Positions 55,062 to 56,479 of a DNA stretch of 64,000 nt are shown piece after piece. Every line of letters begins with the position of its first letter. Position 1 is the first letter of the stretch. The notes beneath the pieces were generated by a model that was not told the DNA's origin, did no database searches, and saw only the letters and a list, made by a program, of their open reading frames with translations. Source of the DNA: Falsirhodobacter sp. 20TX0035 (GTDB lineage Bacteria > Pseudomonadota > Alphaproteobacteria > Rhodobacterales > Rhodobacteraceae); assembly GCF_028307215.1 (NCBI RefSeq), contig NZ_JAQMHV010000005.1, positions 124,001 to 188,000 on the forward strand. Reading direction: 5' to 3'. Made by a program: the position numbers and the translations under genes.

Positions 55062-56050
55062 GCGGGACGCGGCCGCGTGTGGCCTTTGTCGGTCTGGGCT
55101 GGATCGGGCGTCACAGGATGGAGGGCATCCTGGATCTGGTGGAGCCCGTGGCCTTGGCCGACCCCTTCCCCGAGGGGCGCGAGGAGGCCGCCGCCCTGTG
55201 CCCCGGCGCGCAGGTCTTTGAGACGCTGGAGGAAGCGCTGGCCACGAAACCCGACGGGGTGGTGATCGCGACTCCGTCGGCAATGCACGCCGAACAGTCC
55301 GTGGCCGCCCTGACCGCCGGCTGCGCCGTGTTCTGCCAGAAGCCCCTTGGCCGCAGCGCCGTTGAGGTGCAGGGCGTCGTCGACGCCGCCCGGGCCAGCA
55401 ACCGGCTGTTGCACGTGGACCTGTCCTATCGCGGAACGTCGGCCCTCCGGGCCATCCATGCAGCGGTGCAGCGGGGCGACATCGGCAAGGTGTTCGCTGT
55501 CGATCTGGTGTTTCACAACGCCTATGGCCCCGGCAAGCCGTGGTTCTACGACAAGGCGCAGTCGGGGGGCGGACCGCTGATGGATCTGGGGGTCCACCTG
55601 ATCGACTCGGCCCTGTGGTGTCTGAACTTCCCGCAGATGACCTGCACCACGGCCGAGATCTACGGCAAGGGCGCCCCCGGCCTGTCCCCCGACGCGGTGG
55701 AGGATTACGCCAGCGCCACCCTGCGCACCGAGGATGGGACGGCCCTGCGCCTTGCCTGTTCGTGGAACCTCCATGCCGGGCGCGAGGCGGTGATCGAGGT
55801 GCATCTGCACGGCACCGAAGGCGGGCTGTCCCTGACCAACCCCGGCGGCGACTTCTACGACTTCGAGGCGCGCCTGCATCGTGGCACCACGAGCGAGCGG
55901 ATCGCCGCACCGCCGGACCCGTGGGGCATCGCCATGATCCGCGACTGGGCCACGCGCCTTGGGCAGGACGCGTCCTTCGATCCGGCGGCGGAACGTTACG
56001 TGGATCTGGCCCGTGTCATCGACGACATATATACGAAGGGTGCCCGTTAG
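55058..56050 (+). CDS. Gfo/Idh/MocA family oxidoreductase
   Basis: A 330-residue protein: RPRVAFVGLGWIGRHRMEGIL (Rossmann), VFCQKPLGRSAVEVQGVVDAARASNRLLHVDLSYRG with the catalytic Lys of the E/QKP motif, GGPLMDLGVHLIDSALWCL. It is NAD(P)-dependent, probably on a sugar or nucleotide sugar of the glycan pathway, as partner of the coupled ADH (4 bp overlap). Its last ten codons form part of the first unit of the degenerate tandem repeat that follows. Confidence 0.85.
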   Translation: MSGTRPRVAFVGLGWIGRHRMEGILDLVEPVALADPFPEGREEAAALCPGAQVFETLEEALATKPDGVVIATPSAMHAEQSVAALTAGCAVFCQKPLGRSAVEVQGVVDAARASNRLLHVDLSYRGTSALRAIHAAVQRGDIGKVFAVDLVFHNAYGPGKPWFYDKAQSGGGPLMDLGVHLIDSALWCLNFPQMTCTTAEIYGKGAPGLSPDAVEDYASATLRTEDGTALRLACSWNLHAGREAVIEVHLHGTEGGLSLTNPGGDFYDFEARLHRGTTSERIAAPPDPWGIAMIRDWATRLGQDASFDPAAERYVDLARVIDDIYTKGAR

Positions 56051-56479
56051 GGGCGAAGCTGGGGCAGTGGGAGCCTGCCCTCTGCGCCGGACTGTGGCCG
56101 GATCGGGACACGGACCCTGTATTTACTTGGGCATCTACGCCGAAGGATCCAGCCACGGCAGGAGCGCTCGCGCGGGCGCAACGGCTTCCCGCCCGCGCGG
56201 AAGCGTCGGATTGCGAGTCAGCAAGCCACGGCCCCATCTGGAATTTATGCCGAGGGCGCCTGCTGGGGATAAGCTGCGATAGGGACGCCAGCGGCGCAAC
56301 AGCTTGCCGTCTGCACCGAAGCGCCGGACCACGGCTGGATTGGGGGTCAGGACCCATGGTCTCTATCCACGATATATGCCGGGAGCGCCGTTTGGAATCA
56401 GCTGCGATGGGGCGCTAGCGGCGCAGCGGCTTGCCATCCGCACCGAAGCGCCGGACCGCGGAAGGATCGGGGGTCAGGA
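56022..56479. repeat. Degenerate tandem repeat (about four copies) spanning a convergent gene junction
   Basis: Four related units lie in tandem at about 56022-56117, 56129-56222, 56241-56351 and 56369-56479. Each runs from a TATACGAAGGG / TATGCCGAGGG-like start, through AGCTGCGAT and GGCGCAACGGCTT, to GCGCCGGACC and GGTCAGG. Units 3 and 4 are about 80 percent alike; they share an identical 18-base block (56313-56330 and 56440-56457, offset 127) and AGCTGCGAT (56272 and 56400, offset 128). Units 1 and 2 are more worn. Unit 1 begins in the last codons of the Gfo/Idh/MocA gene, and unit 4 ends in the last codons of the UgpC-like gene. The array fills the 364 bp without genes (56051-56414). Confidence 0.65.

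What the first reader, a model, noticed from the sequence alone, without database searches (positions are those of the whole stretch)
56022..56479. Worn tandem repeat built from the 3' ends of two convergent genes
About four units of roughly 110-130 bp lie between a Gfo/Idh/MocA gene and a UgpC-like gene. Each unit carries a piece like the end of the first gene and a piece like the end of the second. An ancestral junction seems to have been duplicated several times, then decayed. Units 3 and 4 are still about 80 percent alike, with an 18-base exact block 127 bp apart. The copies could be dead sequence, a transcription-end device for colliding operons, or a slippage hot spot.
Basis: seen in the sequence. 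Interest (0 to 1): 0.6.

Follow-up and report, generated by a model that had tools for sequence, protein, structure and literature searches.

The report
Decayed tandem duplication between convergent genes
A stretch of about 127 bases, made of the tail ends of two genes that face each other, was copied head to tail several times and has since been wearing away; this is an uncommon but ordinary scar, not a new kind of genetic element.

Summary
The repeat is real. Four head-to-tail units (56008-56112, 56113-56225, 56226-56352, 56353-56479) lie across the junction of a Gfo/Idh/MocA gene (+) and a UgpC-like ABC ATPase gene (-). Units 3 and 4 are unmistakable (period 127, 83% matches). Unit 2 is clearly related to units 3/4 and unit 1 moderately so, but units 1 and 2 show no similarity to each other. 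Units 1-3 carry worn copies of the UgpC C-terminus on the ugpC strand (u2 AIRRFRAGGKPLR, u3 LTPNPAVVRRFGADGKLLRR); unit 4 holds the real one. The Gfo-end half is only weakly supported.

Best reading: repeated tandem duplication of a compact convergent junction. The outer copies keep both genes whole; the inner copies decay. It is the only array with period >=40 and score >=80 in 311 kb sampled of this genome (3.2 Mb). Relatives keep adh-gfo, many with the epimerases, but none examined has this ugp operon beside it, so no orthologous junction was found. Units 2-4, not unit 1, fold strong hairpins at the UgpC-end position; retention is slightly better than random decay (combined p about 0.03, post hoc, unit 1 included), so a role in ending transcripts is possible but not shown. 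Ordinary; low interest.

The parts
55058..56050 (+). Gfo/Idh/MocA family oxidoreductase gene; stop TAG at 56048-56050
   Evidence: NCBIfam: 9 families at E <= 0.001, best inositol 2-dehydrogenase 5.3e-26, all below their curated cut-offs; ORF; relatives of up to 70% identity
56008..56112 (.). Unit 1 (105 bp): real end of gfo, then a worn UgpC-end copy (PDPATVRRRG on the minus strand)
56113..56225 (.). Unit 2 (113 bp): worn copy; UgpC end AIRRFRAGGKPLR on the minus strand; strongest hairpin of the array (-30.2 kcal/mol at 56160-56209, minus strand)
56226..56352 (.). Unit 3 (127 bp): worn copy; UgpC end LTPNPAVVRRFGADGKLLRR, with TGG where ugpC has its TAG stop
56353..56479 (.). Unit 4 (127 bp): contains the real UgpC C-terminus and stop (56415-56417)
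56415..57437 (-). UgpC-like sugar ABC transporter ATP-binding protein, from the ATG at 57437 (my queries ran to 57458 and so carried 7 extra residues at the start)
   Evidence: NCBIfam PRK11650 E 3.4e-129, 430.9 bits, just under the 432 cut-off; C-terminal alignment with relatives; start residue
56410..56459 (-). Stem-loop over the last codons and stop of ugpC (-28.9 kcal/mol), with counterparts in units 2 and 3

Best explanation
A compact convergent junction (gfo stop, roughly 20 bp, ugpC stop) was tandemly duplicated at least twice over time by slippage or template switching. The unit ran from about 43 bp at the gfo end (stop included) to 65 bp at the ugpC end (stop included). A tandem duplication across such a junction leaves both genes whole: the first unit keeps the gfo end and the last keeps the ugpC end. 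The inner copies are therefore free to decay. Units 3/4 are the youngest pair, or were homogenised; units 1 and 2 are older or lost more. Shown: the units, their order, and UgpC-end remnants on the right strand. Inferred: number and order of events, mechanism, the size of the ancestral gap, lack of function.
For: Repeat statistics. UgpC C-terminal peptide found on the correct strand in unit 1 (7/3000 random segments as good), unit 2 (0/3000) and unit 3 (0/3000), and at background level on the other strand. In relatives the two proteins end close by: Gfo from 3 residues shorter to 8 longer in 10 of 10, UgpC from 2 shorter to 13 longer in the 18 of 23 loci that gave a C-terminus, so the extra copies are outside the genes. 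Unit 3 differs from the real ugpC end at 9 of 65 bases, 3 at each codon position, 5 non-synonymous including the stop and 4 synonymous: no sign of coding constraint, though the numbers are small. Not a dispersed element: one match in the own genome, the array itself.
Against: Units 1 and 2 are not similar to each other. Gfo-end similarity in units 2-4 is weak on its own. No relative with a single-copy junction was found to polarise the history. Hairpins in the copies are somewhat better kept than random decay would give.
Confidence: 0.78

Rival explanations
1. The array is a kept ladder of stem-loops at the end of the ugp operon that stops or protects transcripts; duplication was retained because further units bring further hairpins.
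For: Units 2, 3 and 4 fold a hairpin at the same minus-strand place (-30.2, -24.2, -28.9 kcal/mol; 0.3%, 4.6% and 0.6% of 12,790 50-nt windows of this 64 kb fold as well). 15 pairs taken from the four-unit fold are formed in 94.3% of 53 cells, against 28.8-61.4% when slid by 1-3 columns. Random placement of the same substitutions gives as stable a fold in 524, 369 and 576 of 5000 for units 3, 2 and 1; combined p 0.029. 6 of 20 other UgpC-like loci have, near their stop, a fold reached by at most 1.1% of their own 50-nt windows (best of 21 windows each, uncorrected; e.g. L003 -37.3, L005 -34.9); the other 14 do not.
Against: Unit 1 has only a weak fold at this place on the ugpC strand (-14.1). 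Whole-unit folds are not unusual against shuffles (z from -1.21 to +1.15 in 8 folds). No terminator-like site with a T run (0 found, 0.3 expected). Column shuffles do not reject chance pairing (76 to 229 of 500 reach the observed values), and the structure comes from the same alignment. Each single p is about 0.1, the tests are post hoc, other stretches gave up to 0.33, and the units share ancestry. On the plus strand unit 3 shows nothing (2192 and 2929 of 5000).
Confidence: 0.14
2. A recombination-active minisatellite (VNTR) in which copy number varies between strains and slippage homogenises neighbours.
For: Units 3 and 4 are far more alike (83%) than the rest, as expected if adjacent copies were recently exchanged or newly duplicated.
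Against: Even units 3 and 4 differ at about 17% of positions, and their longest exact match is 18 bases, so present slippage is expected to be rare (inference). No second strain is held.
Confidence: 0.06
3. Only units 3-4 are a true duplication; units 1-2 are chance resemblance.
For: Units 1 and 2 do not match each other; the gfo-like half is weak.
Against: Unit 2 carries AIRRFRAGGKPLR on the expected strand and place (0/3000) and aligns to units 3/4 at 0-4/20,000. Unit 1 is at 3-28/20,000 and 7/3000.
Confidence: 0.05

Closest known systems
Bacterial intergenic minisatellites / VNTR loci (recalled, general knowledge)
   Same: Head-to-tail units of about 100 bp between genes, imperfect copies
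   Different: Made from the tails of its own two flanking genes; copies strongly worn; variation between strains unknown
Partial tandem gene duplication leaving 3'-end pseudogene fragments (recalled, general knowledge)
   Same: Truncated copies of a gene end beside the intact gene, decaying
   Different: The duplicated unit appears to span the ends of two convergent genes and was repeated at least twice
REP/BIME or MIRU repeats (recalled, general knowledge)
   Same: Intergenic, near stop codons, with stem-loops
   Different: Those are dispersed over genomes; this unit has one match in its genome

Membership tests
Tandem repeat (minisatellite) array | Head-to-tail copies beyond chance | tested here: met
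   TRF score 342 for units 3-4; units 1 and 2 against 3 and 4; units 1 and 2 against each other: not met
Tandem repeat (minisatellite) array | Copy number variable between strains (VNTR) | not testable with these tools
   One genome per species held; no orthologous junction found in 7 same-genus or 394 family genomes, own included
Dispersed repeat (REP/BIME/MIRU-like) | Copies at other places in the genome | tested here: not met
   1 match in the own genome at E <= 0.001, the array itself
Intrinsic terminator | GC stem followed by a T run | tested here: not met
   0 sites in 55900-56600
Known structured RNA family | Rfam model reached | tested here: not met
   In 55901-56600 one hit at E <= 1: E 0.38, score 22.3 against gathering 80
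Partial 3'-end gene duplication | Copies of the gene's C-terminal codons on the expected strand | tested here: met
   UgpC C-terminus in units 1-3; for gfo inconclusive

The most novel reading that the evidence does not exclude
A convergent gene junction that grew, by repeated duplication of gene ends, into a ladder of stem-loops which buffers two opposed operons from each other: the hairpin overlapping the ugpC stop is kept in units 2, 3 and 4 while the coding sense of the copies decays.
Probability: 0.1. Interest if true: 0.5.

Novelty: new member of a known kind. Interest (0 to 1): 0.2.

Why it matters
It is a readable fossil of how intergenic DNA between convergent genes can grow: 364 bp between the two stops, apparently built from an ancestral gap of some 20 bp (inferred) without harming either gene. 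If the hairpins proved functional, it would show duplication making a transcription-end device.

Tried and rejected
Dispersed element: rejected. Rfam RNA: nothing at threshold. Sigma-70-type promoters or T-tailed terminators: none. Longer UgpC reading frame into the repeats: rejected, since relatives end within a few residues as a rule. Covariation: not significant.

Orthologous junction: sought and not found. Same-genus UgpC matches of near full length are 55-61% identical; three partial ones (about 240-250 residues) are 64-72%. Family UgpE matches are at most 55% (14 of 394 genomes at E <= 1e-110, own included). Of 385 class genomes only the own one passes 1e-115. The 20 plasmid records listed of 2391 match at 66-70% DNA over 46-51% of the query and none of the 2391 covers 80% of it; all 2709 plasmid records are under 60% for UgpE protein. 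The one region I opened, a Roseomonas plasmid, has no gfo annotated within 8 kb. Family DNA hits of 55800-56800, in the rows listed (the list is cut): apart from the own array they lie in the ATPase coding part, one of them (G212) beginning inside the ugpC end that is part of unit 4, or once (G057) inside gfo; none lies between the two stops. Of 80 gfo loci, none shows a UgpE, UgpA or UgpB relative at E <= 1e-10; 10 show a UgpC relative at 28-48%, 2 of them left of gfo; some of the 80 are short, so their flanks are only partly seen. The 7 gfo loci and 35 other than the own one show no ugp relative within about 1.5 kb.

Literature: searches returned no papers; one search returned 4 and one search returned 3, seen as search listings only and none opened. 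None of the titles describes such an array. This is a thin search and not evidence that it is absent from print.

Errors of mine: the adh query was in the wrong frame, corrected. In one search the structure string did not match the predicted pairs, corrected; both results were seen. UgpC was queried from 57458, 7 residues before its ATG (seen). Only part of the own genome was surveyed for arrays (310,955 of 3,225,911 bases).

Full report
What is there. The gfo stop is at 56048-56050 (+) and the ugpC stop at 56415-56417 (-), with 364 bp between. TRF reports one strong array, 56246-56479, period 127, 1.8 copies, 83% matches, score 342, beside two 8-base rows scoring 32 and 33; the repeat finder gives a 71-nt gapless pair at 86% and a 36-nt family of three that includes unit 2. 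With boundaries set by the repeat joints I use u1 56008-56112, u2 56113-56225, u3 56226-56352, u4 56353-56479. These boundaries are my inference for u1/u2.

Chance. Each unit pair was scored against 20,000 segments of real DNA from the window and the loci fetched by then, with two scoring schemes (second in brackets). u3-u4: 0 (0) as good. u2-u4: 0 (4). u2-u3: 0 (0). u1-u4: 23 (28). u1-u3: 27 (3). u1-u2: 8033 (8437), no signal. The summed score of u1 against u3 and u4 is reached by 4 (0), that of u2 by 1 (0). The background contains ugpC relatives, which should make this test strict. 1000 dinucleotide shuffles per pair with slightly different boundaries agree: u1-u2 145, u1-u3 2, u1-u4 1, the other three pairs 0.

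What the units are made of. The real UgpC C-terminal peptide was matched without gaps to three frames of the ugpC strand of each unit: u3 LTPNPAVVRRFGADGKLLRR (0 of 3000 random own-genome segments as good), u2 AIRRFRAGGKPLR (0 of 3000), u1 PDPATVRRRG (7 of 3000); the other strand scored 21 each time, the background mean being 20.8. The Gfo end is recalled only faintly: IYAEGS in u2 (326 of 3000), IYAEGA in u3 (94 of 3000), YMPGA in u4 (1603 of 3000); at DNA level the gfo end is reached by 171 of 20,000 against u3 and 1643 against u4. Relatives' proteins end near the same place: Gfo from 3 residues shorter to 8 longer (10 of 10 loci), UgpC from 2 shorter to 13 longer (18 loci; 5 more of 23 gave no C-terminus).

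Decay. In the 65 ugpC-end bases u3 differs from u4 at 9 places, 3 at each codon position, 5 non-synonymous (one at the stop, TAG against TGG) and 4 synonymous; 70% of all possible single changes would be non-synonymous. That is compatible with unconstrained decay, with small numbers. Unit G+C (66-67%) is a little below gfo (69%) and ugpC (68%).

Rarity and relatives. The array is the only one with period >= 40 and score >= 80 in 310,955 bases of this genome (window plus 13 stretches). In 1,132,596 bases of other fetched loci (a few from the same genome), one (L097, period 78) passed with period >= 60 and score >= 80. The own genome holds no second copy at E <= 0.001. Frigidibacter (L019), Paracoccus (L020) and Falsirhodobacter deserti (L021) share the order epimerase-epimerase-adh-gfo at 62-90% protein identity, with no ugp relative in these loci (6 kb each side of the match); their ORFs right of gfo are. 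None of 80 gfo loci shows a UgpE, UgpA or UgpB relative; 10 show a UgpC relative at 28-48%, and some loci are short. G002, a same-genus genome, has its gfo at the coordinates of L021, so the window's genus is probably Falsirhodobacter (Paracoccaceae); this is inference. Of 7 same-genus genomes, own included, 2 have a gfo match at E <= 1e-40. No orthologous junction was found, so the history cannot be polarised.

Hairpins. On the ugpC strand the same place folds to -28.9 (u4), -24.2 (u3), -30.2 (u2) and, in a shorter piece, only -14.1 kcal/mol (u1); 0.6, 4.6 and 0.3% of 12,790 50-nt windows of this 64 kb reach the first three values. A structure predicted on the four units is formed in 94.3% of 53 cells (28.8-61.4% when slid), but column shuffles reach the observed values in 76-229 of 500, and the structure comes from the same alignment. 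Placing each unit's own substitutions at random on the u4 sequence gives a fold as stable in 524 (u3), 369 (u2) and 576 (u1) of 5000, Fisher p 0.029; across stretch choices single p values on this strand ran from 0.07 to 0.33, and on the plus strand 0.44-0.59 for u3 and 0.08-0.15 for u2. Whole-unit folds are ordinary against shuffles, z -1.21 to +1.15 in 8 folds with slightly different boundaries. Of 20 other ugpC-like loci, 6 have near the stop a fold reached by at most 1.1% of their own windows (best of 21 windows, uncorrected), 14 do not. I take this as suggestive at most.

Verdict. A worn tandem duplication of a convergent junction: real, locally unusual, mechanistically ordinary.

Noticed in passing
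window 56415-60832 (-): The ugpCEAB-like operon is unusual for its surroundings: the best UgpE relative in 394 family genomes is only 55% identical, while the neighbouring epimerases are 84-90% identical to those in L019-L021, which suggests gain from outside.
   Followed up: partly
window 33073-33135: Short tandem repeat, period 30, 2.1 copies, 84% matches, rich in C and G; possibly a Pro/Ala-rich coding linker (guess, not tested).
   Followed up: no
L097 8362-8532: Tandem array of period 78, 2.2 copies, 87% matches in a Geomonas locus.
   Followed up: no
window 57434-57437: The end of ugpE and the ATG of ugpC overlap by 4 bases, typical of translationally coupled genes (general knowledge).
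   Followed up: no
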